Positions 4,511 to 33,472 of a DNA stretch of 64,000 bases are shown piece after piece. The notes beneath the pieces were generated by a model. That model was not told the DNA's origin, made no database searches, and was given only the letters and a program-made list of their open reading frames with translations. Numbering within the stretch: position 1 is the stretch's first letter; each line of letters begins with the position of its first letter. The stretch lies in the NCBI GenBank assembly GCA_949130485.1, contig OX422205.1, positions 3,020,415 to 3,084,414 of the forward strand, given 5' to 3'. The position numbers and the translations under genes are program-made. This DNA is from Agelas oroides (taxonomy: Eukaryota; Porifera; Demospongiae; Agelasida; Agelasidae).

Positions 4511-4714
4511 GGAAGTGAGGAAAGCAATTTTCTCTAATGTTGAGTTCCTGTGAAGCACATGCAGGCCTGTTAAAGTGCCAGCAAAGACGGAGATAGCAGT
4601 TTTCACCACTGTGGAGGTGTTGTGAGGCTCGTGCAACCCTGGTTTGGTACCAGGAAAGATTGAGAAAGCAATTTTCATCACCGTGGAGATGCTTTGAATC
4701 ACGTGCAGGCCTGT
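4511..4714 (+). repeat. 72-bp satellite array, first block
   Basis: The array starts abruptly inside a monomer (GGAAGTGAGGAAAGCAATTT) and continues for just under three monomers before a TTAA element interrupts it. Monomers share the core GCAGGCCTGTTTAAGTGCC followed by GGAAAGA-CGAGAAAGCAG and CACTGTGGAGGT. I call this orientation plus throughout. Confidence 0.9.
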
Positions 4715-4718
4715 TTAA

Positions 4719-5225
4719 CTCTTTAACAACCGTAGGCTATTTACTGGAAGTGTTTATTAGGCTATGGATACCTTCCATGGTCCGTATTTTCACATCTGCT
4801 TGGAGCTAGCACTGGAAACTTGACTCAAAGCTTTATTGACACATTCTCTGTAGGTTCATGACCTTGGACACACCCACTCATTAGCGAGCGTTCAATAGTC
4901 AGGGCCCTCCAACCAGAGAACGCTCCTCCAGGCTAAAAGTTGCCTAAAATGCCAGAAATGGAGTCCCTACAAGGTGAAAGGAGCGTTTTCTATGCCCGTT
5001 TGTGCAAGAAAGCAGACAAATGGCCTACCCGGCATTGACCAAGGCTTTTCTACAGGCAGCTACAACCGCCGCCATGCACTGTCAGCAAGAGCGGTGCACC
5101 CACCCACCTCCCCCTCTCCCACCCTTTCTGCTAGCGCAGAGCCTATCTTCAAAACGGATTGCGCCAACCGATAACATGCGGCCAAAATCTAACGACGCCA
5201 TATGGCGTCATTGATTGGTAAAGGG
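4719..5225. mobile_element. TTAA-flanked MITE (piggyBac-like) in the satellite
   Basis: A 507-bp non-repeat segment is flanked by TTAA at 4715-4718 and 5226-5229. Its ends form imperfect terminal inverted repeats: CTCTTTAACAACC on the left, and the reverse complement of GATTGGTAAAGGG on the right. Deleting the element and one TTAA restores a normal monomer (CTGTTTAA joined to GTGTCAGGAAAG). TTAA duplications with CCCTTT-like ends are typical of piggyBac-type elements. No transposase ORF is present; the ORFs of 66-70 codons inside have no recognisable domain. Confidence 0.82.
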
Positions 5226-8200
5226 TTAAGTGTCAGGAAAGATCGAGAAAGCAATTTTCACTACTGTGGAGGTATTTTAAAGCTCGTGCTGGCCTGGTTG
5301 GGTACCAGGAAAGACCGAGAACGCAGTTTTCACCACTTTGGAGGTCTGATAAACCTCGTGCAAGCCTGTTTAAGTGCCAGGAAAGTTCGAGAAAGCAATT
5401 TTCACGACTGTAGAGGTGCTGTAAAGCTCGCGCAGGCCTGTTTAGATATCAGGAAAGATTGAGAAAGCAGTTTTCATCGCTGTATGAGCTGCATATTACG
5501 TGCAGGCCTGTCTAAGTACATGCAAGGACGGAGAAAGCAGTTTTCAAGACTATAGAGGTATTGTGAAGCTCGTGCAAGCCCATTTCAGTGCGAGGAAAGA
5601 GCAAGAAAGCAGATTTCATCACCTCCATAGTCTTCAAAACTGCTTTCTCCGCCCTTGCAAGTTCTTAAACAGGCCTGCACGTGCTTCACAGCACCTACAC
5701 AGTGATCAAAACAGCTTTCTCGATCTTTCCTGGCACTAAAATAAGCTTACATGAGCTTCAGCAGACCTCCACAGTAGTGAAAACTGTTTTCACTGTCTTT
5801 TTTGGCACTTAAACAGGCCTGCAGGTGTTGCGAAGCTTGCGCAAGCCCATTTCCTTGCCAGGAAAGAGCGAGAAAGCACTTTTCATCACTGTGGGGGTGC
5901 TGAGTAACTAGTGCAGGTATGTTTAAGTGGCTGGAAGGTCGGACAAAGCCATTTTAACCACTGTGGAGGTCCTGTGAAGCTCGTGCAGGCTTCTTGATGT
6001 GCGGGAAGGAGCGAGAAAGCCATTTTAACCACTGTGGAGGTGGTGCAAGCCTGTTTCAATGCCAGGGGAGATGAGGAAAGCATATTTTCTCTAGTGTGGA
6101 GGTCCTGTGAAGCTCGTGCAGGCCTGTTTAAGTGTCAGGAAGACAGAGAAAGCAGTTTTCACCAGTGTGTAGGTGTTGTGAAGCTCGTGCAAGCATGTTT
6201 AAATGCCAGGGGAGATGAGGAAAGCATATTTTATCGAGTGCGGAGGTGATGTGATGAACGTGCAGACCTGTTTTAATATCAGGAAGTATCGAGAAAGCAG
6301 TTTTCATCACTGTGTATGTACTGGGTAGTACGTGCAGGCCTGTTTAAGTGCCGGGACGGTTCGACAAAGCCATTTTAACCACTGTGGAAGTCCTGTGAAG
6401 CTCGTGCAAGCCTGGTGAATGTCAGGGAAGATGAGGAAAGCAATTTTCTCTAATATTGAATTCCTGTGAAACACGTGCAGGCCTGTTAAAGTGCCATAGA
6501 CGGAGACAGCAGTTTTAACAAATGTGGAGGTGCTGTGAGGCAGCCTCGTTTGGTACCAGGAAAGGTCGAGAAAGCAATTTTCATCACCGTGGAGGTGCTG
6601 TAAACCACGTGCAGGCCTGTTTAAGTGCCAAAAAACACGGTGAAAGCAGTTTTTACTACTGTGGAGGTTTGCTGAAGCTCGTACAAGCTTATTTTAGTAC
6701 CAGGAAAGATCAAGTAAGCAGTTTTGATCACTCAGTAGGTGCTGTGAAGCACATGCAGGGCTGTTTTAAGTACCTGCAAGGACGGAGAAGGCAGTTTTCA
6801 AGACTATGGAGGTATTGTGAAGCTCGTGCAAGCCCATTTCAGTGCTAGGAAAGAGAGAGAAAGCAGTTTTCATCACCGTGAAGGTGCTGTGAAACACGTG
6901 CAGGCCTGTTTAAGTGCCAAAAATGACGGTGAAAGCAGTTTTCACTACTGTGGAGGTCTGCTGAGGCTCGTGTAAGCTTATTTCAGAACAAGGAAAGATC
7001 GAGAAAGCAGTTTTGATCACTGAGTATAGGTGCTGTGAAGCACGTGCAGGCCTGTTTAAGTACCTGCAAGGGTGGAGAAAGCAGTTTTGAACACTATGGA
7101 GGTGTTGTGAAGCTCGTGCAAGCCCATTTCCGTGCCAGGAAAGAGCGAGAAAGCACTTTTCATCACTGTGGGGGTGCTGAGTAACTCGTGCAGGTATGTT
7201 TAAGTGGCTGGAAGGTCAGAGAAAGCCATTTTAACCAGTGTGGAGGTCCTGTGAAGCTCGTGCAAGCCTGTTGATGTGCGGGAAGGAGCGAGATAGCCAT
7301 TTTAAAATATGGAGGTCATGTGAAGCTGGTGCAAGCCCGTTTAAATGCCAGGGGAGATGAGGAAAGCATATTTTCTCTAGTGTGGAGGTGCTCTGAAGCT
7401 CGTGCAGGCCTGTTTAAGTGCCAGGAAAGACGGAGAAAGCAGTTTTCACCAGTGTGTAGGTCTTGTGAAGCTCGTGCAAGCATGTTTAAATGCCAGGGGA
7501 GAAGAGGAAAGCATATTTTCACTACTGTGGAGGTCTGCAGAGGCTCGTGTAAGCTTATTTTAGTACCAGGAAAGATCGAGAAAGCAGTTTTGATCACTGA
7601 GTATAGGTGCTGTGAAGCACGTGCAGGCCTGTTTAAGTACCTACAAGGGTGAAAAAGCAGTTTTGAGCACAATGGAGGTGTTGTGAAGCTCGTGCAAGCC
7701 CATTTCCGTGCAAGGAAAGAGCGAGAAAGCACTATACATCACTGTGGGGGTGCTGAGTAACTCGTGTAGGTATGTTTAAGTGGCTGGAAGGTCGGACAAA
7801 GCCATTTTAACCAGTGTGGAGGACCTTTGAAGCTCGTGCAAGCCTGTTGACGTGCGGGAAGGAGCGAGATAGCGATTTTAACCACTGTGGAGGTCATGTG
7901 TAGATGGTGCAAGCCTGTTTAAATGCCTGGGGAGATGAGGTAAACATATTTTCTCTAGTGTGGAGGTCCTGTGAAGCTCGTGCAGGCCTGTTTAAGTGCC
8001 AGGAAAGACGGTAGGTCTTGTGAAGCTCGTGCAAGCATGTTTAAATGCCAGGGGAGATGAGGAAAGCATATTTTCTCTAGTGTGGAGGTGATGTGATGGA
8101 CGTGCAGACCTGTTTAGATATCAGGAAGTATCGAGAAAGCAGTTTTCATCACTGTGTATGTACTGGGTAGTACGTGCAGGACTGTTTAAGTGCCGGGACG

Positions 8201-8870
8201 GTTCGACAAAGCCATTTTAACCACTGTGGAAGTCCTGTGAAGCTCGTGCAAGCCTGGTGAATGCCAGGGAAGATGAGGAAAGCAATTTTCACTAATATTG
8301 AATTCCTGTGAAGCACGTGCAGACATGTTAAAGTGCCAGCATAGACGGAGATAGCAGTTTTAAGCAGTGTGGAGGTGTTGTGAGGCAGCCTGGTTTTGTA
8401 CCAGGAAAGATCGAGAAACCAATTTTCATCACTGTGGAGGTGCTGTAAAGCACGTGCAGTCCTTTTTAAGTGCCCAAAAAGACGGTGAAAGCAGTTTTTA
8501 CTACTGTGGAGGTTTGCTGAAGCTCGTATAAGCTTATTTTAGTACCAGGAAAGATCAAGAAGTAGTTTTGATCACTGAGTAGGTGCTGTGAAGCACGTGC
8601 AGGGCTGTTTTAAGTACCTGCAAGGACGGAGAAGGCAGTTTTCAAGACTATGGAGGTATTGTGAAGCTCGTGCAAGCCCATTTCAGTGCGAGGAAAGAGA
8701 GAGAAAGCAGTTTTCATCACCGTGGAGGTGCTGTGAAGCACGTGCAGGCCTGTTTAAGTGCCAAAAAAGACGGTGAGAGCAGTTTTCACTACTGTGGAGG
8801 TCTGCTGAAACTCGTGTAACCTTTTTTTAGTGCCAGGAAAGATCGAGAAAGCAGTTTTGATCACTGTGTA
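5226..8870 (+). repeat. 72-bp satellite array, second block
   Basis: About 50 monomers of 70-73 bp in plus orientation, with one inverted patch at 5623-5823. Diagnostic types recur in order: GAGTAACTCGTGCAGGTATG, then GTTGATGTGCGGGAAGG, AAATGCCAGGGGAGATGAGG, GCACGTGCAGGCCTGTTAAA, TGGTTTGGTACCAGGAAAG, GTGCCAAAAAAGACGG, AAGCTTATTTTAGTACC, AAGTACCTGCAAGGACGG and AAGCCCATTTCAGTGCC. The recurring order marks a higher-order repeat. Stops and 70-73-bp length changes break reading frames, so ORFs here are not annotated as genes. Confidence 0.92.
5623..5823 (-). repeat. Inverted patch of satellite monomers
   Basis: About 2.8 monomers (the CTGCAAGGACGG, AAGCTTATTTTAG and GTGCCAAAAAAGACGG types) read on the minus strand, with sharp joints to plus-strand monomers on both sides. 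The order within the patch is the normal higher-order order reversed, so this is a true inversion or inverted insertion and not divergence. Confidence 0.88.
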
Positions 8871-10064
8871 GATGTAGCGTGTCCAAACAAAACATTAAAT
8901 TTTGCAATGGAAAAAATTTAGTAATACAGGCTTAAAGAGCAGCCTGAGAGTAATTGAACGATATGCATATTGCCTGGGTTACCTATATTTTACCCCAAGG
9001 TATTGCTTTCCGAAGTCAAGTGGTACTGTACCCACTTTTTACAACAAAATTCAATGGAGAGGGTGGCACCACGCAACCTCATTTAAAGATCAAGTACATA
9101 CAACACCTCATCCAGTTTTAAATTTTCTGCGGATCTAAATGGGTCCTGTGCTATGATATCCTACCCTTTGTTTGGAGCACAACAGCTCACAGCAGTGGTA
9201 TCAGTGTATATTATGGTAGATGTTTAAAGTTTGTTTCTTTGAAGAGCTGGCTATGGGGATGACTCTGCATGATGATGAAAATGATGTTTGTTTTGGCTAA
9301 TGAGTCTAAGTGTAGCTACCAGTGAGTCCCCAAACCTGCAGACAGGAGTCACCAACATGCATGGTCATCATAATCTGCACCTTAGTGCCTGGAATCTCTA
9401 TAGGAAGGGCAGTATGGCTTGTCCACCTATTCCCTTCAACCCAGTCACTGGTCATTCACCATCACATTCTTGTTTGTGGATCTCTTAATAGTCCTTCTTT
9501 TTTGTAACTGCAAACGCTTTCTTCTCTCCTTCACCATTCTGTGGGCCCACTTATCTCCCAGCAGCTACAGCTGTGGATTTCATACTCTCTTTAGCTCTAT
9601 TATGCATGAACAGACTTGCTACCACACACACAAGCATATGCAGTTCTTATGTCAGTAAACAGCCTCCACCACTCAGGTATCAGGAGTTAAATGTTTGTTT
9701 CCAAGATCAGCTGAGGTCCTTTGGTAATCCTAACGGGAATAAAGTAATTTGCAGCAGTAAATGACTGTACTGGAGTGACACTCGCTTGCAATGTCCTGAG
9801 CTTTTGCTAATTGCCACAGTAGTGTGCCAGTTTCGACGGCAAATACAACCCAAATACAACCCAAATAATTGAAATGTGCACCCCAAGAAACCTATTTCCC
9901 ATGGTAAGGGTTGCATATACCTTAGAAGTCCAGTGAAATTTGTAAACAGTGGCTAAAACACCAAACAAAAGGTAGAGTTTAAAAAAAATGATTGTCCTTA
10001 CCAGCAGAATTGAAAAGAAGAACGAAAGCGCTTCCATTTGATGTGCGTTGCAAGGCTATTGGCC
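8871..10064. other. Non-satellite island inside the array
   Basis: About 1.2 kb with no 72-bp homology. Satellite similarity ends after CACTGTGTAG and resumes at GAAAGTGCTGTAAAGTTCG. No terminal inverted repeats or target duplication were found, and the monomer types on the two sides are not neighbours in the usual order, so the island accompanies a deletion or rearrangement. It contains a small run of AAATACAACCC repeats near 9841-9867. ORFs of 60-79 codons show no recognisable domain. Confidence 0.7.
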
Positions 10065-11279
10065 GAAAGTGCTGTAAAGTTCGTGAAGGCCTGTTTAAAA
10101 GAGTTTTGCAAGCTCGTGTATCAGGAAAGATCAAGAAAGCAGTTTTCATCACTGTGTATGTGCTGGGTAATACGTGCAGGCCTGTTTAAATGTCGGGATG
10201 GTTCAACAAAGCCATTTTAAACACGGTGGAAGTCCTGTGAGGCTCGTTCAAGCCTATTTAAATGCCAGGGAAGGTAAGGAAAGCAATTTTCTCTAGTGCT
10301 GACTTTCTGTGAAGCACGTACAGGCCTGATAAAGTGCCAGCAAAGACGGAGATAGCAGTTTTCACCACTGTGGAGGTGTTGTGAGGCTCGTGCAATCCTG
10401 GTTTGGTACCAGGAAAGATCGAGAAAGCAGTTTTCGTCACTGTGGAAGTCCTGTGAAGCTCCTTCAAGCCTGGTGAATGCCAGGGAAGATGAGGAAAGCA
10501 ATTTTCTCTAATATTGAATTCCTGTGAAGCACATGCAGGCCTGTTAATGTGCCATCATAGACGGAGATAGCAGTTTTAACCACTTTGGAGGTGTTGTGGG
10601 GCAGCTTGGTTTGGTACCAGGAAAGATCGAGAAAGCAATTTTCATCAACGTGGAGGTGCTGTAAACCACGTGCAGGCCTGTTTAAATGCCAAAAACGACG
10701 GTAAAAGCAGTTTTTACTACTGTGGAGGTATGCTGAAGCTCGTATAAGCTTATTTTAGTACAAGGAAAGATCAAGAAAGCAGTTTTGATCACTGGGTAGG
10801 TGCTGTGAAGCACCTGCAGGGCTGTTTTAAGTACCTGCAAGAACGGCGAAGGCAGTTTTCAAGACTATGGAGGTGTTGTGAAGCTCGTGCAAGCCCATTT
10901 CAGTGCCAGGAAAGAGCGATAAAGCAGTTTTAATCACTGTGGGGGTGCTGAGTAACTCGTGCAGGTATGTTTAAGTAGCTGGAAGGTCGGACAAAGCCAT
11001 TTTAACCACTGTGGAGGTCCTGTGAATCTCGTGCAAGCCTGTTGATGTGCGGGAAGGTGCGAGAAAGCCATTTTAACCACTGTGAAGGTCATGTGAAGCT
11101 CGTGCAAGCCTGTTTAAATGCCAGGGGAGATGAGGAAAGCATATTTTCTCTAGTGTGGAGGTCCTGTGAAGCTCGTGCAGGCCTGTTTAAGTGCCAGGAA
11201 AGACGGACAAAGCAGTTTTCACCAGTGTGTAGGTCTTTTGAAGCTCGTGCAAGCATGTTTAAATGCCAGGGTAGATGAG

Positions 11280-13663
11280 GAAAGCTTATTTTCTCTACTG
11301 TGGAGGGGATGTGATGCACGTACAAGCCTGTTTATGTGCCAGGAAGGATGGAAAAGGAGTTTTCACCACTGTGGAGGTCTTGTGAAGCTCTTGCAGGGCG
11401 GTTTATCAGCCAGTAAAAATAGAGAAAAGAATTTTCACCACTGCGGAAGTGCAATAAAGTTCGTGAAGGCCTGTTTAAATATCAGGAAAGATCGAGAAAG
11501 CAGTTTCCATCACTGTGGAAGTCCTGTGAAGCTAGTGCAACCCTCGTGAATACCAGGGAAGATGAGGAAAGCAATTTTCTCTAATATTGAATTCCTGTGA
11601 AGCACGTGCAGGCCTGTTAAAGTGCCAGCATAGACGGAGAAAGCAGCTTTAACCACTTTGGAGGTGTTGTGAGGCAGCCTGGTTTGGTACCAGGAAAGAT
11701 CGAGAAAGCAATTTTCATCACCGTGGAGGTGCTGTGAACCACGTCATGGCCTGTTAAAGTGCCAAAAACAACGGTGAAAGCAGTTTTTTCTACTGTGGAG
11801 GTATGCTGAAGCTCGTATAAGCTTATTTTAGTACCAGGAATGATCAAGAAAGCAGTTTTGATCACTGAGTAGGTGCTGTGAAGCACGTGCAGGGCTGTTT
11901 TAAGTACATGCAAGGACGGAGAAGGCAGTTTTCAAGACTATGGAGGTATTGTGAAGCTTGTGCAAGCCAATTTCAGTGTCAGGAAAGAGAGAGAAAGCAG
12001 TTTTCATCACCGTGGAGGTGCTGTGAAGCACGTGCAGGCCTGTTTAAGCGCCAAAAAAGACGGTGAAAGTAAGAGTAGTGATAGTATAGATTTAATGCCA
12101 GGAAAGATCTAGAAATCAGTTTTGATCACTGTGTAGGTGCTGTGAAGCACGTGCAGGCCTGTTTAAGTACCTGCAAGGGCGGAGAAAGTAGTCTTGAACA
12201 ATATGGAAGTGTTGTGAAGCTCGTGCAAGCCAATTTCCGTGCCATGAAAGAGCGAGAAAGCACTTTTCATCACTGTGGGAGTGCTGAGTAACTCGTGCAG
12301 GTATGTTTAAGTGGCTGGAAGGTCGGACAAAGCCATTTTAACCACTGTGGAGGTCCAGTGAAGCTCATGCAGGCCTGTTTAAGTGCCAGGAAAGACGGAG
12401 AAAGCAGTTTTCACCAGTGTGTAGGTCTTGTGAAGCTCGTGCAAGCATGTTTAAATGCCAGGGGAGATGAGGAAAGCTTATTTTCTCTACTGTGGAGGGG
12501 ATGTGATGCACGTACAAGCCTGTTTATGTGCCAGGAAGGATGGAAAAGGAGTTTTCACCACTGTGGAGGTCTTGTGAAGCTCTTGCAGGGCGGTTTATCG
12601 GCCAGTAAAAATAGAGAAAAGAATTTTCACCACTGCGGAAGTGCAATAAAGTTCGTGAAGGCCTGTTTAAATATCAGGAAAGATCGAGAAAGCAGTTTCC
12701 ATCACTGTGGAAGTCCTGTGAAGCTAGTGCAACCCTCGTGAATACCAGGGAAGATGAGGAAAGCAATTTTCTCTAATATTGAATTCCTGTGAAGCACGTG
12801 CAGGCCTGTTAAAGTGCCAGCATAGACGGAGAAAGCAGCTTTAACCACTTTGGAGGTGTTGTGAGGCAGCCTGGTTTGGTACCAGGAAAGATCGAGAAAG
12901 CAATTTTCATCACCGTGGAGGTGCTGTGAACCACGTCATGGCCTGTTAAAGTGCCAAAAACAATGGTGAAAGCAGTTTTTTCTACTGTGGAGGTATGCTG
13001 AAGCTCGTATAAGCTTATTTTAGTACCAGGAATGATCAAGAAAGCAGTTTTGATCACTGAGTAGGTGCTGTGAAGCACGTGCAGGGCTGTTTTAAGTACA
13101 TGCAAGGACGGAGAAGGCAGTTTTCAAGACTATGGAGGTATTGTGAAGCTTGTGCAAGCCAATTTCAGTGTCAGGAAAGAGAGAGAAAGCAGTTTTCATC
13201 ACCGTGGAGGTGCTGTGAAGCACGTGCAGGCCTGTTTAAGCGCCAAAAAAGACGGTGAAAGTAAGAGTAGTGATAGTATAGATTTAATGCCAGGAAAGAT
13301 CTAGAAATCAGTTTTGATCACTGTGTAGGTGCTGTGAAGCACGTGCAGGCCTGTTTAAGTACCTGCAAGGGCGGAGAAAGCAGTCTTGAACAATATGGAA
13401 GTGTTGTGAAGCTCGTGCAAGCCAATTTCCGTGCCATGAAAGAGCGAGAAAGCACTTTTCATCACTGTGGGAGTGCTGAGTAACTCGTGCAGGTATGTTT
13501 AAGTGGCTGGAAGGTCGGACAAAGCCATTTTAACCACTGTGGAGGTCCAGTGAAGCTCATGCAGGCCTGTTTAAGTGCCAGGAAAGACGGAGAAAGCAGT
13601 TTTCACCAGTGTGTAGGTCTTGTGAAGCTCGTGCAAGCATGTTTAAATGCCAGGGGAGATGAG
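11280..13663 (+). repeat. 1,192-bp near-identical tandem duplication of one higher-order unit
   Basis: Bases from about 11280 to 12471 are repeated at 12472 to 13663 with an exact 1,192-bp offset. I noticed only a few single-base differences (near 11402/12594, 11768/12960 and 12188/13380). Neighbouring higher-order units differ far more. The copy carries the same idiosyncratic run GTAAGAGTAGTGATAGTATAG (in two parts, near 12068 and 13260), so it is a recent unequal-crossover product. Confidence 0.9.
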
Positions 13664-16600
13664 GAAAGCATATTTTCTCTACTGTGGAGGGGGATGTGAT
13701 GCACGTACAAGCCTGTTTATGTGCCAGGAAGGATGGAAAAGGAGTTTTCACCACTGTGGAGGTCTTGTGAAGCACGTGCAGGGCTGTTTATTGGCCAGTA
13801 AAGATAGAGAAAAGAATTTTGACCACTGCGGAAGTGCTGTAAAGTTCGTGAAGGCCTGTTTAAGTATCAGGAAAGATCGAGAAAGCAGTTTTCATCACTG
13901 TGTATGTGCTGGGTAATACGTGCAGACCTGTTTAAATGCCGGGATGGTTCGACAAAGCCATTTTAACCACGGTGGAAGTCCTGTGAGGCTCGTTCAAGCC
14001 TATTTAAATGCCAGGGAAGGTAAGGAAAGCAATTTTCTGCAGTACTGAGTTGCTGTGAAGCACGTGCAGGCCTGTTAAAGTGCCAGCAAAGACGGAGATA
14101 GCAGTTTACACCACTGTGGAGGTGTTGTGAGGCTCGTGCAATCCTGGTTTGGTACCAGGAAAGATCGACAAAGCAGTTTTCGTCACTGTGGAAGTCCTGT
14201 GAAGCTCGTTCAAGCCTAGTGAATTGCAGGGAAGATGAGGAAAGCAATTTTCTCTAATCTTCAATGCCTGTGAAGCACGTGCAGGCCTGTTAAAGTGCCA
14301 GCACAGACGGAGATAGCAGTTTTAACCACTTTGGACGTGTTGTGAGGCAGCCTGATTTGGTACCAGGAAAGATTGAGATAGCAATTTTCATCACCGTGGT
14401 GGTGCTGTAAACCTCGTGCAGGCCTGTTTAAGTGCCAAAAACCACGGTAAAATCAGTTTTTACTACTGTGGAGGTATGCTGAAGCTCGTATAAGCTTATT
14501 TTAGTACCAGGAAAGATCAAGAAAGCAGTTTTGATCACTGGGTAGGTGCTCTGAAGCACGTGCAGGGCTGTTTTAAGTACCTGCAAGGACGGAGAAGGCA
14601 GTTTTCAAGACTATGGAGGTATTGTGAAGCTCGTGCAAGCCCATTTCAGTGCCAAGCACGTGCAGGCCTGTTTAAGTACCTGCAAGGGCGGAGGGAGAAA
14701 GCAGTTTTGAACACTATGGAGGTGTTGTGAAGCTCGTGCATGCCAATTACCGTGCCAGGAAGCAGCGACAAAGCACTTTTCATCACTGTGGGGGTGCTGA
14801 GTAACTTTTTCAGGTATGTTTAAGTGGCTGGAAGGTCGGACAAAGCCATTTTAACCACTGTGGAGGTCCTGTGAAGCTCGTGCAGGCCTGTTAATGTGCG
14901 GGATGGAGTGTGAAAGCTATTTTAACCACTGTGGAGGTCATGTGGAGCTGGTGCAAGCCTGTTTAAATGCCACGGGGGATGAGGAAAGCATATTTTCTCT
15001 AGTGTGGAAGTCCTGTGAAGATCGTGCAGGCCTGTTTAAGTGCCAGGAAAGACGGAGAAAGCAGTTTTCACCAGTGTGTAGGTCTTGTGAAGCTCGTGTA
15101 AGCATGTTTAAATGCCAGGGGAGATGAGGAAAGCATATTTTCTCTAGTGTGGAGGTGATGTGATGCACGTGCAGACCTGTTTAAATATCAAGAAGGATCG
15201 AGAAAGCAGTTTTCATCACTGTGTATGTACTGGGTAGTACGTGCAGGCCTGTTTAAGTGCAGGGACGGTTCGACAAAGCCATTGTAACCACTGTGGAAGT
15301 CCTGTGAAGCTCGTGCAGGCCTGTTTAAGTGCCAGGAAAGCGGAGAAAGCAGTTTCCACCAGTGTGTAGGTCTTGTGAAGCTCGTGCAAGCATGTTTAAA
15401 TGCTTGCACTGCGAAAGTGCTGTAAAGTTCGTGAAGGCCTGTTTAAGTATCAGGAAAGATCGAGAAAGCAGTTTTCATTACTGTGTATGTGCTGGGTAAT
15501 ACGTGCAGGCCTGTTTAAGTGCCGGGACGGTTCGACAAAGCCTTTATAACCACGGTGGAAGTCCTGTGAGGCTCGTTCAAGCCTATTTAAATGCCAGGGA
15601 AGGTAAGGAAAGCAATTTTCTCTAGTGCTGAGTTTCCGTGAAGCACGTGCAGGCCTGTTAAAGTGCCAGCAAAGACGGAGATAGCAGTTTTCACCACTGT
15701 GGAGGTGTTGTGAGGGTCGTGCAATCCTGGTTTGATACCAGGAAAGATCGCGAAAGTAGTTTTCGTCACTGTGGAAGTCCTGTGAAGCTCGTTCAAGCCT
15801 GGTGAATGCCAGGGAAGATGAGGAAAGCAATTTTCTCTAATATTGAATTCCTGAAGCACGTGCAAGCCTGTTAAAGTGCCAGTATAGACGGAGATAGCAG
15901 TTTTAACCACTTTGGAGGTGTTGTGAGGCAGCCTGGTTTGGTACCAGGAAAGATTGAGAAAGCAATGTTCATCAACGTGGAGGTGCTGTAAACCACGTGC
16001 AGGCCTGTTTAAGTGCCAAAAACGACGGTAAAAGCAGTTTTTACTACTGTGGAGGTATGCTGAAGCTCGTATTAGCTTATTTTAGTACCAGGAAAGATCA
16101 AGAAAGCAGCTTAGGTCACTGGGTAGGTGCTGTGAAGCACGTGCAGGGCTGTTTTAAGTCCCTGCAAGGACGGAGAAGGCAGTTTTCAAGACTATGGAGG
16201 TATTGTGAAGCTTGTGCAAGCCAATTTCAGTGTCAGGAAAGAGAGAGAAAGCAGTTTTCATCACCGTGGAGGTGCTGTGAAGCACGTGCAGGCCTGTTTA
16301 AGCGCCAAAAAAGACGGTGAAAGCAGTTTTCACTACTGTGGAGGTCTGCTGAAGCTCGTGTAAGCTTATTTTAGTGCCAGGAAAGGTGAAGAAAGCAGTT
16401 TAGATCACTGAGTAGGTGCTGTGAAGCACGTGCAGGACTGTTTTAAGTACCTGCAAGGACGGAGAAGGAAGTTTTCAAAACTATGGAGGTGTTGTGAAGC
16501 TTGTGCAAGCCCATTTCAGTGCCAGGAAAGAGAGAGAAAGCAGTTTTCATCACCGTGGAGGTGCTGTGAAGCATGTGCAGGCCGGTTTAAGTACCTGCAA

Positions 16601-16740
16601 GGGCGGAGAAAGCAGTTTTGAACACTATGGAGGTGTTGTGAAGCTCGTGCTAGCCCATTTCCGTGCCACGAAAGAGCGAGAAAGCACTTTTCATCACTGT
16701 GGGGGTGCTGAGTAACTCGTGCAGGTTTGTTTAAGTGGCT

Positions 16741-22600: not shown

Positions 22601-25600
22601 GTGCCATGAAGGATGGAAAAGTAGTTTTCACCACTTTGGATCTCTTGTGAAGCTCGTGTAGGGCTGTTTTGGGGCCAGGAAAGATCGAGAAAGGAATTTT
22701 CACGACAGTGGAAGTGCTGTAATGTTCGTGCAGGCCTGTTTAAGTATCAGGAAAGATCGAGAAAGCAGTTTTCATCACTGTATGTGCTGGGTAATACGTG
22801 CAGGCCTGTTTAAGTACCGGGATGGTTCGACAAAGCCATTTTCACCACTGTGGAAGGTCCTGTGAAGCTCGTGCAAGCCTGTTTAAATGCCAAGGAAGAT
22901 GGGGAAAGCAATTTTCTCTAGTGTTGAGTTCCTGTGAAGCACGTGCAGGGCTGTTAAAGTGCCAGCGAAGGCGGAGATAGCAGTTTTCACCACTGTGGAG
23001 GTGTTGTGAGGCTCGTTCATTCCTGGTTTGTAACCAGGAAAGATCGAGAAAGCAATTATCATCATCGTGGAGGTGCTGTGAACCACGTGCAGACCTGTTT
23101 AAGTGCCAAAAAAGAAGTTGAAAGCAGTTTTCACTACTGTGGATGTCTGCTGAAGCTCGTGCAAGCTTATTTTAGTGCCAGGAACGATCGAGAAAGCAGT
23201 TTTGATCATTGTGTAGGTGCTGCGAAGCACGTACAGGCCTGTTTAAGTACCTGCAAGGACGGAGAAAGCAGTTTTCAATACTATGGAGGTATTGTGAAGC
23301 TCGTGCAAGCCCATTTCAGTGCCAAGAAAAACAGCGAGAAAGCAGTTGTCATCACTTTGGGGGTGATGAGCAAGTCGTGCTGGTATGTTTAAGTGGCTGG
23401 AAGGTCGAACAAATCCATTTTAACCACTGTGGAGGTCCTGTGAAGCTCGTGCAAGCCTGTTGATGTGTGCGAAGGTGCAAGAAATCCATTTTAACCACTG
23501 TGGCGGTCATGTTAAGCTCGTGCAAGCCTGTTAAAGTGCCAGGGGAGCTGAAGAAAGCATATTTTCTCTAGTGTGGAGGTCTTGTGAAGCATGTGCAGGC
23601 CTGATAAAGTGCCAGGGAGATAGCAGTTTTCACCACTGTTGAGGTGTTGTGAGGGTTGTGCACGCCTGGTTTGGTGCCAGGAAAGATCGAGAAAGCAATT
23701 TTCATCACCGTGGGGGTGCTGTGAAGCACATGCAGGCCTGTTTAAGTGCCTGCATGGACGGAGAAAGCAGTTTTCAAGACTATGGAGGTATTGTGAAGCT
23801 CGTGCAAGCCCATTTCATTGCCAGGAAAAGAGCGAGAAAGCAGTTTTCATCACTGTGGGGGTGCTGAGTAACTCGTGCAGGTATGTTTAATTGGCTGGAA
23901 AGTCGGACAAGCCATTTTAACCACTGTGGACGTCATGGGAAGGTCGTGCAAGCCTGTTTAAATTCCAGGGGAGATGAGGAAATCAATTTTTCTCTAGTGT
24001 GGAGGTCCTGTGTTGCTCGTGCAGGCCCGTTGAAGTGTCAGCAAAGACGGAGGTAGCAGTTTTCACCACTGTGAAGGTGTTGTGAGGCTCGTGCAAGCCT
24101 GGTTTGGTACCAGGAAAGACCGAGAAAGCAAATTTCATCACCGTGGAGGTGCTGTGAAGCTTGTGCAGGCCTGTTTAAGTGCCAGGAAGGACGGAGAAAG
24201 CAGTTTCACCGCTGTGTAGGTCTTGTGAAGCTCGTGCAAGCCAGTTTAAATCCCAGGGGAGATGAGCAAAGCATATTTTCCCTAGTGTGGAGGCGGTGTG
24301 ATGCACGTACATGCCAGTTTAAGTGCCACGAAAGATGGAGAAAGCAGTTGACACCACCGTGGAGGTCTTGTGAAGCTCGTTCAAGACTGTTTAAGTGCCA
24401 AGAAAGACGGTGAAAGTAGTTTTCACTATTGTAGAGGTTTGCTGAAGCTCGTATAAGCTTATTTTAAGGCCAGTAAAGATCAAGAAAGCAGTTTTGATCA
24501 CTGTGTATGTGCTGTGAAGCACGTGCAGGGCTGTTTAAGGGCCAGCAAAGACGGAGATAGCAGTTATCACCACTGTGGAGGTATTGTGAAGCTCGTGCAA
24601 TCCCATTTCAGTACCAGGAAAGAGCGAGAAAGCAGTTTTCATCACTGTGGGGGTGCTGAGTAGTTCGTGCAGGTATGTTTAAGTGGCTGGAAGGTCGGAC
24701 AAAGCCATTTTAACCACTGTGGAGGTCCTGTGAAGCTTGTTCAAGCCTGTTGATGTGTGCGAATGTGCAAGAAATCCATTTTAACCTCTGTGGAGGTCAT
24801 TTGAAGCTCGTGCAAGCCTGTTTAAATGCCAGGGGAGATGAGGAAAGCAAGTTTTCTTAAGTGTGGAGGTCCTGTGAACCTCGTGCAGGCCTGTTTATGT
24901 GCCAGGAAAGACGGAGAAAGCAGTTTTCACCAGTGTGTAGGTCGTGTGAAGCACGTGCAAGCATGTTTAAATGCCAGGGGAGATGAGGAATTCATATTTT
25001 CTGTACTGTGGAGGTGATGTGATGCACGTACAAGCCTGTTTAGGTGCCATGAAGGATGGAAATGTAGTTTTCACCACTCTGGAGCTCTTGTGAAGCACGT
25101 GCAACGCTGTTTTGGGGTCAGGAAAGATCGAGAGTGGAATTTTCACGACTGTGGAAGTGCTGTAAAGTTCGTGCAGGCCTGTTTAAGTCTCAGGAAGATC
25201 GAGAAGGCAGTTTTCATCACTGCGTATGTGCTTGGTAATACATGCAGGCCTGTATAAGTGCCGGAGCGGATCAACAAAGCCATTTCAACGCTGTGGAAGT
25301 CCTGTGAAGCTCGTGCAATCCTGTTTAAATGCCAGGGAAGATGAGGAAAGCAATTTTCTCTAGTGTTGAGTTCCTGTGAAGCACGTGCAGGCCTGTTAAA
25401 GTGCCAGCAAAGACGGAGATAGCAGTTTTCACCAGAGTTGAGGTGTTGTTAGGCTCGTGCAAGCCTGGTTTGGTACCAGGAAAGATCGAGAAAGCAATTT
25501 ACATCACCCTGGAGGTGCTGAGTAACTCGTGCAGGTGTGTTTAAGTGGCTGGAAGGTCGGACAAAGCCATTTTAACCACTGTGGAAGTCCTGTGAAGCTC

Positions 25601-28600
25601 GTGCAGGCCTGTTGATGTGCGGGAAGGTGTGAGAAAGCCATTTTAACCACTGTGGAGGTCATGTGAAGCTCGTGCAAACCTGTTTAAATGCCAGGGGAGA
25701 TGAGGAAAGCAAATTTTCTTAAGTGTGGAGGTCCTGTGAACCTCGTGCAGGCCTGTTTATGTGCCATCAATGACGGAGAAAGCAGTTTTCACCACTGTGT
25801 AGGTCTTGTGAAGCTCGTGCAAGCATGTTTAAATGCCAGGGGAGATGAGGAATGCATATTTTCTGTACTGTGGAGGTGATGTGATGCACGTACAAGCCTC
25901 TTTAGGTGCCATGAAGGATGGAAAAGTAGTTTTCACCACTCTGGAGCTCTTGTGAAGCTCGTGCAAGGCTGTTTTGTGGTGAGGAAACATCGACAGACGA
26001 ATTTTCACGACTGTGGAGATGCTGTAAAGTTCGTGCAGGCCTGTTTGAGTGTCAGGAAAGATCGAGAAGGCAGTTTTCATCACTGTGTATGTGCTGGATA
26101 ATACATGCAGGCCTGTATAAGTGCCGGGGTAGTTCGACAAAGCCATTTCAACGCTGTGGAAGTCCTGTGAAGCTCGTGCAAGCCTGTTTAAATGCCAGGG
26201 AAGATGAGGAAAGCAATGTTCTGAAGTGTTGAGTTCCTGTGAAGCACGTGCAGGCGTGTTTAAGTGTCAGCAAAGCCGGAGATAGCAGTTTTCAACAGAG
26301 TTGAGGTGTTGTGAGGCTCGTGCAAGCCTGGTTTGGTACAAGGAAAGATCGAGAAAGCAATTTTCATCATTCTGGAGGTGCTGTGAAGCACGTGCAGGCC
26401 TGTTTAAGTGCCAAAAAAGACGGTGAAAGCAGCTTTAACTACTGTAGAGGTCTGCTGAAGGTCGTGAAAGCTTATTTTTGTGCCAGGAAAGATCTAGAAA
26501 GCGGTTTTGATCAGTGTGTAGGTGCTGTGAAGCACGTGCAGGCCTGTTTAAGTACCTGCAAGGACAGAGAAAGCAGTTTTCAAGACTATGGAGGTATTGT
26601 GAAGCTTGTGCAAGCCCATTTCAGTGTCAGGAAAGAGCGAGAAAGCAGGTTTTCATCACTGTGTATGTGCTGGGTAATACGTGCAGGCCTGTTTAAGTGC
26701 CATGACGGTTCGACAAAGCCATTTTAACCCCTGTGGAAGTCATGTTAAGCTCGTGCAAGCCTGTTTAAATGCCAGGGGAGATGAAGAAAGCAAATTTTCT
26801 CTAGTGTGGAGGTCCTGTGTAGCTCGTGCAGTCCTGTTAAAGTGCCAGCAAAGACGGAGATAGCAGCTTTCACCACTGTGGAGGCGTTGTGAACCTCGTG
26901 CAAGTCCATTTCAGTGCCATGAAAGAGCAAGAAAGCAGTTTTCATCACTGTGGGGGTGCTGAGTAACTCGCACAGGTATGTTTAAGTGGCTGGAAGGTCG
27001 GACAAAGCCATTTTAACCACTGTTGAGGTCCTGTGAAACTCGTGCAGGCCTGTTGATGTGCGGGAAGGTGCGAGAAAGCCACTTTAACCACTGTGGTGGT
27101 CATGTGAAGCTCGTGCAAACCTGTTTAAATGGCAGGGGAGATGAGCAAAGCAAATTTGCTTAAGTGTGGAGGTCCTGTGAACCTCGTGCAGGCCTGTTTA
27201 TGTGCCAGGAAAGACGGAGAAAGCAGTTTTCACCACTGTGTAGGTCTTGTGAAGCTCGTGCAAGCATGTTTAAATGCCAGGGGAGATGAGGAATGCATAT
27301 TTTCTGTACTGTGGAGGTGATGTGATGCACGTACAAGCCTGTTTAAGTGTCACGAAGGATGGAAAAGTAGTTTTCACCACTCTGGAGCTCTTGTGAAGCT
27401 CGTGCAAGGCTGTTTTGGGGTCAGGAAAGATCGAGAGAGGAATTTTCACGACTGTGGAAGTGCTGTAAAGTTCGTGCAGGCCTGTTTAAGTGTCAGGAAA
27501 GTTCGAGAAGGCAGTTTTCATCACTGCGTATGTGCTGGGTAATACATGCAGGCCTGTATAAGTGCCGGAGCGGTTCCACAAAGCCATTACAACGCTGTGG
27601 AAGTCCTGTGAAGCTCGTGCAAGCCTGTTGAAATGCCAGGGAAGATGAGGAAAGCAATTTTCTCTAGTGTTGAGTTCCTGTGAAGCACGTGCAGGCCTGT
27701 TAAAGTGCCAGCAAAGCCGGAGATAGCAGTTTTCACCACTGTGGAGGTGTTGTGAAGCTCGTGCATGTCCATTTCAGTGCCATGAAAGAGCAAGAAAGCA
27801 GTTTTCATCGCTGTGTATGTGCTGGGTAATACGTGCAGGCTGTTTAACTGCCGGTACGGTTCGACAAACCTATTTTAACCGCTGTGGAAGTCTTGTGATG
27901 CTCGTGCAAGCCTGTTTAAATTCAAGGGAAGATGAGGAAAGCAATTTTCTCTAGTGCTGATTTTCTGTGAAGCTCGTGCAAGCCTGTGTAAATGCCAAGG
28001 GAGATTAGGAAAGCATATTTTCTCTAGTGTGGAGGTCCTGTCAAGCACGTGCAGGCCTGTTTAAGTGCCAGGAGAGACGGAGAAAGCCGTTTTAAAAACT
28101 GTGGAGGTCTTATGAAGCTGATGAAAGGCATTGTTTGGTCCAGGAAAGATCGAGAAAGCAAGTTTCGTCACCGTGGGGATGCTTTGAAGCATGTGCAGGC
28201 CTGTTAAAGTGCCAGGAAAGATCAAGAAGGCAATTTTCACGACGGTGGAAGTGTTGTAAAACTCGTCCTGGATTGTTTGAATACCAGGAAAGACGTAGAA
28301 CGCAGTTATTACCACTGTGGAGGTCTGGTAAACCTCGTGCCAGCCTGTTGAAGTGCCAGGAAAGACGGTGATCAAAACTGCTTTCTCGATCCTTCCGTGA
28401 GCTTCAGCAGACGTCCACAGTAGTCTTTTCAGGCACTTAAACAGGCCTGCACGTGCTTCACAGCACCTGCATGGTGATGAAAATTGCTTTCTAGATCTTT
28501 CCTGGTACCAAACCAGGCATGCACGAGCCTCACAACACCTCCATCTCTGTGTAGGTGCTGTGAAGCACGTGCAGGTCTATTTAAGTACCTGCAAGGACGG

Positions 28601-31600
28601 AGAAAGCAGTTTTCAACACTATGGAGGTGTTGTGAAGCTCGTTTAAGCCCATTTCAGTGCCAGGAAAGGGCGAAGAAAGCAGTTTTCATCACTGTGGGGG
28701 TGCTGAGTAACTCGTGCATGTATGTTTAAGTGGCTGGAAGGTCGGACAAAGCCATTTTAACCACTGTGGAGGGCATGTGAAACTCATGCAAGCTGCCATG
28801 GGAGATGAGGAAAGCATATTTTCTATAGTGTGGAGGTCCTGGGATGAACGTACAGGCCTGTTTAGGTGCCTGGAGAGATGGAGAAAGCTGTTTTCACCAC
28901 TGTAGAAGTCTTGTGAGGCTCGTGCAAGCCTGGTTTGGTACCATGAAAAGAGCGAGAAAGCAGTTTTCATCACTGTGGGGGTGCTGAGCAACTCGTGCAG
29001 GTATGTTTAAGTGGCTGGAAGGTCGGACAAAGCCATTTTAACCACTGTGGAGGTCCTGTGAAGCACGTGCAAGCCTGTTGATGTGTGCGAAGGTGCAAGA
29101 AATCCATTTTAACCACTGTGGCGGTCATTTTAAGCTCGTGCAAGCCTGTTAAAGTGCCAGGGGAGCTGAAGAAAGCATATTTTCTCTAGTGTGGAGGTCT
29201 TGTGAAGCATGTGCAGGCCTGTTAAAGTGCCAGGGAGATAGCAGTTTTCACCACTGTTGAGGTGTTGTGAGGCTTGTGCACGCCTGGTTTGGTACCAGGA
29301 AAGATCTAGAAAGCAATTTTCATCACCGTAGAGTTGCTGTGAAGCACGTGCAGGCCTGTTTAAATGCCTGCATGGACGGAGAAAGCAGTTTTCAAGACTA
29401 TGGAGGTATTGTGAAGCTCTTGCAAGCCCATTTCAGTGCCAGGAAAGAGCGAGAAAGCTGTTTTCATCACTGTGGGGGTGCTGAGTAACTCGTGCAGGTA
29501 TGTTTAATTGGCTGGAAAGTCGGACAAGCCATTTTAACCACTGTGGAGGTCATGTGAAGGTCGTGCAAGCCTGTTTAAATGCCAGGGGAGATGAGAAAAG
29601 CAATTTTTCTCTAGTGTGGAGGTCCTGTGTAGCTCGTGCAGGCCCGTTGAAGTGCCAGCAAAGACGGAGGTAGCAGTTTGCACCACTGTGGAGGTGTTGT
29701 GAGGCTCGTTCAAGCCTGGTTTGGTACCAGGAAAGATCGAGAAAGCAATTTTCATCATCGTGGAGGTCCTGTGAAGCTTGTGCAGGCCAGTTTAAGTGCC
29801 AAGAAGGACGGATTCACCGCTGTGTAGGTGTTGTGAAGCTCGTGCAAGCCAGTTTAAATCCCAGGGGAGATTAGGAAAGCATATTTTCTCTAGTGTGGAG
29901 GCGGTGTGATGCACGTACATGCCAGTTTAGGTGCCAGGAGAGATGGAGAAAGCAGTTGTCACCACGGTGGAGGTCTTGTGAAGCTCGTGCAAGGCTGTTT
30001 AAGTGCCAAAAAAGACGGTGAAAGTAGTTTTCACTATTGTACTGAAGCTCGTATAAGCTTATTTTCATGCCAGGAAAGATCAAGAAAGCAGTTTTGATCA
30101 CTGTGTAGGTGCTGTGAAGCACGTGCAGGGCTGTTAAAGGGACAGCAAAGACGGACATAGCAGTTTTCACCACTATGGAGGTATTGTGAAGCTCGTGCAA
30201 GCCCATTTCAGTACCACGAAAGAGCGAGAAAGCAGTTTTCATCACTGTGGGGGTGCTGAGTAACTCGTGCAGGTATGTTTAAGTGGCTGGAAAGTCGGAC
30301 AAAGCCATTTTATCCACTGTGGAGGTCCTGTGAAGCTCGTGCAAGCATGTTGATGTGTGCGAAGAAATCTATTTTAACCACTGTGGCGGTCATGTTAAGC
30401 TCGTACAAGCCTGTTAAAGTGCCAGGGGAGATGAAGAAAGCATATTTTCTCTAGTGTTGAAGTCTTGTGAATCACGTGCAGGCCTGTTAAAGTGCCAGGG
30501 AGATAGCAGTTTTCACCACTGTTGAGGTGTTGTGAGGCTTGTGAACGCCTGGTTTGGTACCAGGAAAGATCGAGAAAGCAATTTTTCATCACGGTGCAGG
30601 TGCTGCGAAGCACGTGCAGGCCTGTTTAAGTGCCACAAAAGACGGTGAAAGCAGCTTTCACTATTGTGGAGGTCTTCTGAAGCTCGTGTAAGCTTATTTT
30701 AGTGCCAGGAAAGATCGAGAAAGCAGTTTTGGTCACTGTGTAGGTGCTGTGAAGCACGTGCAGGCCTGTTTAAGTACCTGCAGGGACGGAGAAAGCAGTT
30801 TTCAAGACTATGGAGGTATTGTGAAGCTCGTGCAAGCCCATTTCCGTACCTAGAAAGAGCGGTGCTGTTCATGTGCCAGGAAAGATCGAGAAAGGAATTT
30901 TCACGACTCTGGAATTGCTATAAAGTTCGTGCAGGCCTGTTTAAGTATCAGGAAAGATTGAGAAAGCAGTTTTACTCACTGTGTATGTGGTGGGTAATAC
31001 GTGGAGGCCTGTTTAAGTGCCGGGACGGTTCGACAAAGCCATTTTAACCACTGTGGAAGTCCTGTGAAGCTCGTGCAAGCCTGTTTAAATGCCAGGGAAG
31101 GTGAGGAAAGCAATTGTTTCCAGTGTTGAGATCCTGTGAAGCATGTGCATGCCTGTTAATGTACCAGGGAGATAGAAGTTTTCACCACTGTAGAGGTGTT
31201 GTGAGGCTCGTGCAAACCTGGTTTTGTGCCAGGAAAGATCGAGAAAGCAATTTACATCACCGTGGAGGTGCTTTGAAGCACGTGCAGCCCTGTTTAAATG
31301 CCAGGGAAGGTGAGGAAAGCAATTGTTTCTAGTGTTGAGTTCCTGTGAAGCATGTGCATGCCTGTTAAAGTACCAGGGATATAGAAGTTTTCACCACTGT
31401 AGAGGTGTTGTGAGGCTCGTGCAAACCTGGTTTTGTGCCAGGAAAGATCGAGAAAGGAATTTTCATCACCGTGGAGGTGCTGTGAAGCACGTGCAGGCCT
31501 GTTTAAGTGCCAAAAAAGGCGGTGAAAGCAGTTTTGGAGGTCAGCTAAAGCTCGTGCAAGCTTATTTTAGTGCCAGGAAAGATTGAGAAAGCAGTTTTAA

Positions 31601-33472
31601 TCACTGTGTAGGCTGTTTAAATGCCAGGAAAGATCGATAAAGCCATTTTCATCACCGTGGAGGTGCTGTGAAGCATGTCCAGGCCTGTTTAAGTACCCGC
31701 AAGGATGGAGAAAGCAGTTTTCAAGACTATGGAGGTATTTTGAAGCTCGTTCAAGCCCATTTCTGTGCCAGGAAAGAGCGAGAGAGCAGTTTTCATCAAT
31801 GTGGGAGTGCTGAGTAACTCATGCAGGTATGTTTAAGTGGCTGGAATGTCGGAGAAAGCCATTTTAAGCATGTGGAGGTCCTGTGAAGCTCGTGAAGGCC
31901 TGATTATGTGCTGGGACGGTTCGAGAAACCCATTTTAACCACAGCGGAGGTCATGTGCAGGTCGTGTAAGCCTGTTTAAATGCCAGGGGAGATGAGGAAA
32001 GCAAATTTTTTCTACTGTGGAGGTGATGTGATGCACGTGCAGGCCTGTTTAAGTGCCAAAAAGGACGGTGAAAGCAGCTTTCACAACTGTGGAGGTCTGC
32101 TGAAGGTCGTGAAAGCTTATTTTTGTGCCAGGAAAGATCTAGAAAGCGGTTTTAATCAGTGTGTAAGTGCTGTGAAGCACTTGCAGGCCTGTTTAAGTAC
32201 CTGCAAGGACGGAGAAAGCAGTTTTCAAAACAATGGAGGAATTGTGAAGTGTCAGGAAAGAGCGAGAAAGTAGTTTTCATCACTGTGGGGGTGCTGAGTA
32301 ACTCGTGCAGGTATGTTTAAATGGCTGGAAGGTCGGACAAAGCCATTTTAACCACTGTGGAGGTCCTGTGAAGCTCGTGCGGGCCTGTTGAGGAAAGCAT
32401 ATTTTCTCTAGTGTGGAGGTCATGTGATACACATACAAGCCTGCTTAGGTGCCATGAAGGATGGAAAAGTGGTTTTCACCACTGTGGTAGGGCTGTTTTT
32501 TGGCCAGGAAAGATCGAGAAAGGAATTTCACGACTGTGGAAGTGCTGAAAAGTTCGTGCAGACCTGTTTAAGTATCAGGAAAGATCGAGAAAGCAGTTTT
32601 CATCACTGTGTATGTGCTGGGTAATACGTGCAGGCCTGTTTAAGTACCGGTATGGTTCGACAAACCCATTTTAACCGCTGTGGAATTCATGTGATGCTCG
32701 TGCAAGCCTGTTTCAATGCAGGGGAAGATGAAGAAAGCAATTTACTCTAGTGCTGTGTTTCTATGAAGCTCGTGCAAGCCTGTGGTAAGCATATTTTCCC
32801 GCTCGTGCAGGTGCCAGGACAGACGGAGAAAGCCATTTTTTAACCACTGTGGAGGTCTTATGAAGCTCATGCAAGGCATTTTTTTGTCCAGGAAAGATCG
32901 AGAAAGCAATTTTTGTCACCGTGGGGATGCTTTGAAGCATGTGCAGGCCTGTTAAAGTGCCAGGAAAGATGAAGGCAATTTTCACGACGGTGGAAGTGTT
33001 GTAAAACTCGTGCTTGACTGTTTGAGTACCAGGAAAAGACGTAGAACGCAGTTATTACTACTGTGAAGGTCTGGTAAACCTCGTGCCAGCCTGTTTAAGT
33101 GACAGGAAGGACGGAGACAGCCACTGTGGAGGTGTTGTGAGGCTCGTTCATGCAGGTGCTGTGAAGCCCGTGCAGGCCTGTTCAAATGCCTGTGGACGTC
33201 TACTGAAGTTCGTGGAAGGATCGAGAAAGCAGTTTTGATCACTGTGTAGGTGCTGTGAAGCACGTGCAGGTCTGTTTAAGTACCTGCAAGGACTATGGAG
33301 GTGTTGTGAAGCTCGTGTAAGCCCATTTCAGTGCCAGGAAAGGGAGAAGAAAGCAGTTTTCATCACTGTGGGGGTGCTTGAGTAACTTGTGCAGGTATGT
33401 TTAAGGGCCAAGAAAGCCGGAGAAAGCAGTTTTGACCACTTTGGAAGTCATGTGCACGCCTGTTTCACTGAA
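19656..33472 (+). repeat. 72-bp satellite array, fourth and longest block
   Basis: About 190 monomers in plus orientation, with the same type order repeated about every 1.1-1.2 kb (for example the GAGTAACTCGTGCAGGTATG type near 19924, 20930, 22291, 23868 and 25520). An inverted patch lies at 28371-28545. Monomers become more truncated and irregular after about 30.8 kb, and the array ends in degraded sequence near 33470, as expected at the edge of a satellite where homogenisation is weak. Confidence 0.9.
28371..28545 (-). repeat. Inverted patch of satellite monomers
   Basis: About 2.4 monomers on the minus strand (the TTGATCACT, GTGCCTGAAAAGACTACTG and TTTGGTACCAGGAAAG types) lie between plus-strand monomers, with abrupt joints at GACGGTG/ATCAAAACTG and CTCCATC/TCTGTGTAGG. 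Confidence 0.85.

What the first reader, a model, noticed from the sequence alone, without database searches (positions are those of the whole stretch)
4511..33472. 72-bp satellite organised as a multi-type higher-order repeat
At least 16 distinguishable monomer types follow each other in a recurring order with a period near 1.2 kb, for roughly 360 monomers (array length divided by 72, insertions removed). Neighbouring monomers differ far more than same-type monomers in successive units. This is the alpha-satellite style of organisation, here in an apparent invertebrate and next to genes.
Basis: seen in the sequence. Interest (0 to 1): 0.8.

Follow-up and report, generated by a model that had tools for sequence, protein, structure and literature searches.

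The report
Convergent centromere satellite with ordered monomers
This stretch is very probably the middle of a chromosome's centromere in an early-branching animal (probably a freshwater sponge): 72-letter repeats follow each other in a recurring order, as in primate centromeres, and lie in two arms that point at each other, a layout that recurs on many other chromosomes of the same genome.

Summary
In detail: 364 monomers of a 72-bp satellite in the left array, 17-18 main types, successor type predictable in 78% of cases (22% shuffled), same-type identity 89% against 69% for neighbours. A fixed 1.2-kb period does not hold; units gain and lose monomers.

Missed by the finding: the satellite resumes on the other strand at 47.5 kb, so the window holds a 14-kb, nearly satellite-free centre between two converging arms.

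In the genome the satellite was found on all 23 chromosome-size contigs (thinly on C2, C8, C18); on the 20 mapped by exact words, 636 of 640 listed sites lie within 300 kb of the contig's median site. Copies are homogenised by chromosome (0.97 against 0.85). This is the pattern of a centromeric satellite; CENP-A could not be tested.

Convergence recurs on 9 of 10 well-sampled chromosomes (p=0.02) and on both chromosomes found by evenly spaced probes. C14 is a clear exception and several chromosomes carry extra flips.

Ordered satellites are known and inverted satellite arms are described in Tribolium; this genome-wide layout looks like a new variant. Species inferred, not known.

The parts
4513..8875 (+). 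left arm, outer edge: 72-bp satellite blocks 4513-4704, 5225-5622 and 5820-8875, with a 520-bp insert and a short inverted piece (5617-5820)
   Evidence: nhmmer blocks
10067..18677 (+). left arm satellite, 10067-16720 and 16852-18677, short inverted piece at 16741-16847
19656..33455 (+). left arm satellite, inner part, 19656-28386 and 28542-33455, short inverted piece at 28365-28543
33460..47534 (.). centre between the arms, about 14 kb, nearly free of satellite (stray hits near 33.5, 41.9 and 45.5 kb); made of a foldback element and repeats also found on other chromosomes
47535..55844 (-). right arm satellite, same types read on the other strand, 47535-52595 and 52772-55844, short inverted piece 52598-52789
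56469..63989 (-). right arm satellite, 56469-58235 and 60547-63989, reaching the end of the window; interrupted by an inverted-repeat element at 58236-60546

Best explanation
The 72-bp repeat is the centromeric (or closely pericentromeric) satellite of this animal, and the window lies inside the centromere array of its smallest chromosome, across the point where two arms meet. Each array evolves by unequal exchange and gene conversion within its own chromosome, which amplifies blocks of several ordered monomer types, loses and gains members, and makes types specific to a chromosome and even to an arm. An inversion or inverted duplication in the array has produced arms that converge on a centre with little satellite; the kinetochore forms on the arms or at their meeting point. 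Shown here: type order, chromosome-specific homogenisation, satellite on all 23 chromosomes, one narrow cluster per mapped chromosome, convergence on most well-sampled ones. Inferred: kinetochore function, the exchange mechanism, the inversion history, any benefit of the symmetry.
For: Ordered types. Exact-word searches: 636 of 640 distinct sites within 300 kb of the contig's median site on 20 chromosomes; 19 of 20 medians lie between 0.35 and 0.66 of contig length. Probes on the other three: C17 and C22 hold it in 4 of 40 evenly spaced probes, one place each, C8 in 1 of 9. Same-chromosome best match 0.972 against 0.847 size-matched elsewhere, same better in 98%. One word is found 33 times, all on C23 and one strand. 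Arms of the window share types and order but each is more alike within itself: best match 0.958 own arm, 0.889-0.903 other arm, 0.861 other chromosomes. Convergent order in 9 of 10 chromosomes with at least 4 sites on each strand, and on C17 and C22. No coding signal: substitutions spread 0.36/0.30/0.35 over codon positions, only 26 of 201 length changes are multiples of three.
Against: No CENP-A, Hi-C or cytology. C1's cluster is at 0.82 of its length. C2 and C18 show only two listed sites each, and the C2 piece read holds 180 bp of satellite in 601. C12 and C13 do not show the chromosome-specific excess (0.875 against 0.889; 0.903 against 0.903). C14 is mainly divergent, C15, C16 and C18 are divergent on few sites, C7, C11, C19, C20 and C23 have extra flips. 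No CENP-B box core in the window and short dyads not clearly enriched over shuffles or over the flank.
Confidence: 0.78

Rival explanations
1. The satellite is only pericentromeric padding. The kinetochore sits on the satellite-poor centre between the arms, as on the central core of fission yeast; the arms serve as heterochromatin.
For: Arms and centre are present in the window (14 kb), on C6 (about 9.8 kb) and on C9 (2.3 kb).
Against: The three centres share nothing beyond 31 bp, and the window's centre is a mosaic of repeats also found elsewhere. On C7, C14, C19 and C23 there is more than one strand switch, so no single centre is marked.
Confidence: 0.17
2. The inverted layout has no meaning: inversions arise at random in satellite arrays and the excess of inward-pointing arms is chance plus uneven sampling by exact words.
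For: The statistics are modest: p=0.021 (9 of 10), p=0.077 (12 of 16 untied), p=0.029 (19 of 26 end runs); 14 of 18 with the two probed chromosomes, p=0.031. C14 is a clear counter-example. Sites are not independent: overlapping words hit the same monomer twice, and three listings were cut at 100 rows.
Against: Long single switches on C1 (19 sites + then 35 -), C6 (27 then 45) and C5 (18 then 39 after two - sites at the edge), and both C17 and C22, found by evenly spaced probes, are convergent.
Confidence: 0.35
3. The inverted layout is an assembly artefact, two arms or haplotypes joined head to head.
For: Long inverted repeats are hard to assemble; reads were not available.
Against: No N in the window nor in the 18 pieces. 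Some types are confined to one arm (O and T right; P, Q, S, V and W left) and the arms are separated by 14 kb of other sequence. The same polarity recurs on other contigs with different centres.
Confidence: 0.06
4. The repeat is protein-coding (72 bp is 24 codons, and one frame of the consensus is open).
For: Frame 0 of the consensus is open, and ORFs of up to about 170 aa occur in the window.
Against: No third-position excess; most length changes break the frame; 101 of 235 full-length monomers have a stop in that frame. Two of the satellite ORFs have no Pfam match.
Confidence: 0.02

Closest known systems
Primate alpha-satellite higher-order repeats (recalled)
   Same: Monomer types in recurring order; similarity between units rather than neighbours; chromosome-specific homogenisation; one cluster per chromosome.
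   Different: 72-bp monomer, about 47% GC, no CENP-B box core in the window, no uniform unit length, same-type copies only about 89% alike.
Macro-dyad satellite arrays of Tribolium beetles (PMC13081366; passages read)
   Same: Putative (peri)centromeric satellite arrays that switch strand to give inverted subarrays tens of kb long; its authors write that this had been documented only in Tribolium.
   Different: There the subarrays meet within the satellite at conserved inversion sites, in many repeats along megabase regions. Here three switches that were read have 2.3-14 kb of unrelated, mostly non-satellite sequence between the arms, and several chromosomes show one main switch.
Inverted-repeat regional centromeres of yeasts (recalled) and the GC-skew switch at Candida albicans centromeres (PMC2924309; passages read)
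   Same: A centre flanked by inverted arms; base skew changes sign at the middle.
   Different: The arms are satellite arrays. The skew runs from + to - (left arm +0.237, centre 0.007, right arm -0.231), the opposite of the - to + pattern described for C. albicans centromeric origins, and it belongs to the monomer itself.

Membership tests
Higher-order-repeat centromeric satellite (alpha-satellite style) | Different monomer types in recurring order | tested here: met
   Successor predictability 78% against 22% shuffled; collinear pairs 34% against 2.7%
Higher-order-repeat centromeric satellite (alpha-satellite style) | Unit of constant length, successive units nearly identical | tested here: not met
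   Lags differ between blocks; same-type spacing 14-18 monomers in 25% of 288; same-type identity 0.892
Higher-order-repeat centromeric satellite (alpha-satellite style) | Chromosome-specific homogenisation | tested here: met
   0.972 same against 0.847 other, size matched; C12 and C13 do not show it
Higher-order-repeat centromeric satellite (alpha-satellite style) | One main site per chromosome, on all chromosomes | tested here: met
   20 chromosomes by exact words, 636 of 640 sites near the contig's median; C17, C22, C8 by probes covering part of each contig
Higher-order-repeat centromeric satellite (alpha-satellite style) | Carries CENP-A nucleosomes | not testable with these tools
   No ChIP, Hi-C or cytology available
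Alpha satellite itself | 171-bp AT-rich monomer, CENP-B box in a subset (recalled) | tested here: not met
   72 bp, about 47% GC, no box core on either strand of the window
Tribolium-type macro-dyad satellite | Array divided into inverted subarrays | tested here: met
   Window, C6, C9; many chromosomes by strand of sites
Tribolium-type macro-dyad satellite | Conserved inversion site within the satellite | tested here: not met
   Three centres unrelated and mostly non-satellite; other centres not read
Centromere DNA rich in short dyad symmetries (idea cited in PMC13081366) | Short inverted repeats above expectation | tested here: not met
   z 0.8 to 2.0 in four satellite stretches, 2.2 in the centre, 2.9 in the left flank, 10 shuffles each
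Yeast-type inverted-repeat centromere | Kinetochore on a central core between inverted arms | not testable with these tools
   Arms and centre present; no CENP-A data

The most novel reading that the evidence does not exclude
In this early-branching animal the inward-pointing direction of the satellite arms is itself a kept mark of the centromere: whatever sequence lies where two converging arms meet becomes the kinetochore core, and fork or transcript direction through the strand-biased monomer keeps the arms facing inward. Centromere identity would then be carried by array direction rather than by sequence.
Probability: 0.2. Interest if true: 0.88.

Novelty: new variant of a known kind. Interest (0 to 1): 0.64.

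Why it matters
If the animal is a freshwater sponge, this gives candidate centromeres for a whole chromosome set in a group for which the papers I could open describe none. It would show chromosome-specific, ordered satellite types far outside primates and a second lineage besides Tribolium with inverted satellite arms. The shared inward direction makes an open question testable: does the orientation of centromeric repeats matter for where the kinetochore forms or how the region replicates?

Tried and rejected
Protein-coding reading of the 24-codon repeat: rejected. Regular 1.2-kb unit: rejected as a general description. Conserved central core: looked for between the window, C6 and C9 centres, one 31-bp match only; the 38.15-47.4 kb part gave 153 matches over many chromosomes, 40 of 5353 candidates scored. 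Short-dyad model: no clear enrichment. CENP-B box core: none in the window. RNA families and tRNAs: none in the window. A weak two-monomer (144-bp) signal exists (even lags 0.713, odd 0.700; TRF rows of 144 bp), perhaps an old dimer near nucleosome length, but it is small and the pairs are not independent.

Species: not named. 23 chromosome-size contigs, 256.6 Mb, sizes 32.7, 26.2, 19.4, 12.6 ... 6.8 Mb resemble Spongilla lacustris (23; 31.14, 22.15, 17.78, 13.56 ... 6.79 Mb; PMC12141999, passages) and Eunapius fragilis (23; PMC12616128, passages); neither total (248.7, 218.91 Mb) equals this one. Inference only. A protein search with the left ORF returned eight unnamed proteins.

Absence in print: ten searches of an open-access library, of which I saw the listings; no listed title is about a sponge centromere satellite. 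Passages opened: Ephydatia muelleri (PMC7385117: one mention of a centromere, as a probable scaffold break, and no use of the word satellite); PMC10232365 (Hi-C centromere estimates for Capsaspora and Creolimax); PMC10280926 (only CENPJ). The Spongilla and Eunapius papers do not use the word centromere. Subscription journals and preprint servers were not covered.

Rows dropped before counts: only the 59 exact places were used; the one-mismatch rows in its list (all on C1, all +, isolated ones among them at 24.02 and 26.36 Mb) were left out. Listings were cut at 100 rows (of 130; of 672; of 376); some searches were listed whole. The 640 sites include 9 midpoints of window blocks, and overlapping words can count one monomer twice. 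Strand order uses only sites within 400 kb of each contig's median.
Full report
What was claimed and what is there. This is right. I decomposed the arrays against a 72-bp consensus. The left array gave 364 monomers; 347 of 55-84 bp were typed. Depending on the cut, 17 to 24 types have at least four copies. The commonest successor type follows 78% of the time, against 22% (maximum 25.5%) in 200 shuffles; same-type copies are 89% alike, neighbours 69%. With both arms (530 monomers), a pair at least 88% alike is followed by another such pair in 34% of cases, 2.7% in shuffles. The order reads like C E B F D G (N) H A I L M J K H A C, with parts skipped or repeated.

What does not hold is one 1.2-kb period. 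The 1192-bp lag is prominent only in 10.1-16.7 kb; elsewhere lags such as 1080, 1357, 1441, 1842, 2437 and 7183 bp appear. The next same-type copy is 14-18 monomers away in a quarter of 288 cases. The array preserves order while its units gain and lose members.

A second array. From 47,535 to the right end the same satellite runs on the other strand: of 579 nhmmer hits in the window 203 are on the minus strand, and 190 of those are here. Read on that strand, the same types follow in the same order, but some are confined to one arm. The arms converge on a centre of about 14 kb with only a few stray satellite hits. GC skew is +0.237, 0.007 and -0.231 in left arm, centre and right arm.

Where the satellite lies. 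The window is part of contig C23 (6.76 Mb) of a 259-Mb genome with 23 chromosome-size contigs (sum 256.6 Mb); C24 is 89 kb. Of eight chromosome-contig ends sampled, five carry TTAGGG-type repeats (left of C17, C20, C22; right of C3, C23) and three do not (left of C8, C18, C23). Exact-word searches placed the satellite on 20 of 23, with 636 of 640 listed sites within 300 kb of the contig's median site; 19 of 20 medians lie between 0.35 and 0.66 of the contig's length, C1 at 0.82. For the other three I took small probes over part of each contig. On C22 (2.40-4.68 Mb) and C17 (2.60-5.07 Mb) 4 of 40 probes held satellite: C22 at 4.32 and 4.44 Mb, C17 at 4.16 and 4.42 Mb (the probe between, 4.29, did not). 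On C8 1 of 9 did, at 6.2 Mb. So the satellite is on all 23 chromosomes. On C2, C8 and C18 only small amounts were seen, so an array of full size there is not shown.

Chromosome-specific evolution. Among 2839 monomers from 19 chromosomes (1286 of them from C23) the best same-chromosome match is 0.972 and the best size-matched match elsewhere 0.847; same is better in 98% (chromosomes with at least 20 monomers). C12 (19 monomers) and C13 (50) do not show the difference. One word occurs 33 times, all on C23 and all on one strand.

Direction. The satellite is + on the left and - on the right on C1 (19 sites then 35), C6 (27 then 45), C10 (18 then 4), C3 (6 then 2), C9 (6 then 13, one stray + far right) and C5 (18 then 39, two - hits at one place on the left edge). 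Turning a contig round keeps this pattern, so contig orientation does not matter. Of 10 chromosomes with at least 4 sites on each strand, 9 are mainly convergent (p=0.021). Of 17 with both strands, 12 are, 4 are not, 1 is tied (p=0.077). Of 26 end runs, 19 point inward (p=0.029; all). The two chromosomes found by evenly spaced probes are both convergent, giving 14 of 18 (p=0.031). Against it: C14 (101 convergent, 448 divergent pairs), C15 (one - site among 32), C16 and C18 (divergent, 4 and 2 sites), and extra flips on C4, C7, C11, C19, C20 and C23. I regard convergence as a strong tendency, not a law.

The centres. Three switches were read: about 14 kb (window), about 9.8 kb (C6, with two stray satellite hits) and 2.3 kb (C9). 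The only similarity between them at E 1e-5 is one 31-bp match. The window's centre holds a foldback element of about 3.8 kb with 20-bp repeats in its arms (34.3-38.1 kb) and repeats found on other chromosomes.

How it probably works. Presence on every chromosome, one narrow cluster where mapped, chromosome-specific homogenisation and the lack of a coding signal point to the centromeric satellite. Ordered types with changing unit length are what unequal exchange and gene conversion within an array would give (established knowledge of satellites; not shown here). Convergence could come from an old inversion in each array that is hard to reverse, or from selection; the data do not decide. The sign of the skew is the opposite of that described for C. 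albicans centromeric origins, so if G-rich strands mark leading strands, forks would meet at the centre rather than start there. This is only a prediction.

Relation to what is known. It is organised like alpha-satellite higher-order repeats but is not a member of that family (size, base composition, no CENP-B box core in the window). Inverted satellite arms are described for three Tribolium species; those authors write that the pattern had been documented only in that genus (PMC13081366, passages). In the open-access papers I could search, I found no report of a sponge centromere satellite (searches under Tried and rejected).

Noticed in passing
window 34296-38113: A foldback element of about 3.8 kb: arms of about 1 kb at 89% identity, with an identical outer tip, filled with a 20-bp tandem repeat (34348-34837 and 37440-38076, inverted to each other) and flanked by GAAGCA on both sides.
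   Followed up: partly
window 58236-60546: An inverted-repeat element inside the right arm, with end repeats of about 435 bp at 88% identity.
   Followed up: partly
window 55845-56468: A short element with inverted ends of about 120 bp (88% identity) between two right-arm blocks.
   Followed up: no
window 44124-45246: A dispersed repeat of about 1.1 kb with copies of 82-89% identity on many chromosomes; also near the C3 array.
   Followed up: no
window 18678-19431: An insert in the left arm that is 88% identical over 780 bp to DNA beside the C3 satellite cluster (L002).
   Followed up: no
window 3-530: Exon-like ORF with a weak Josephin match just outside the array; relatives at up to 93% identity in public data, unnamed.
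   Followed up: partly
G000 C1 18.21 Mb (L001) and C20 3.05 Mb (L080): Isolated short satellite pieces (about 5 and 4% of the stretch fetched) far from the main cluster of their chromosome.
   Followed up: no
L081 (C9 5.4448-5.4517 Mb): On C9 two monomer kinds alternate, one with a CCTCCGAGGAGG motif, giving a clear 144-bp dimer; a word from the second kind occurs 376 times in the genome, the listed places being on C5 and C6.
   Followed up: partly
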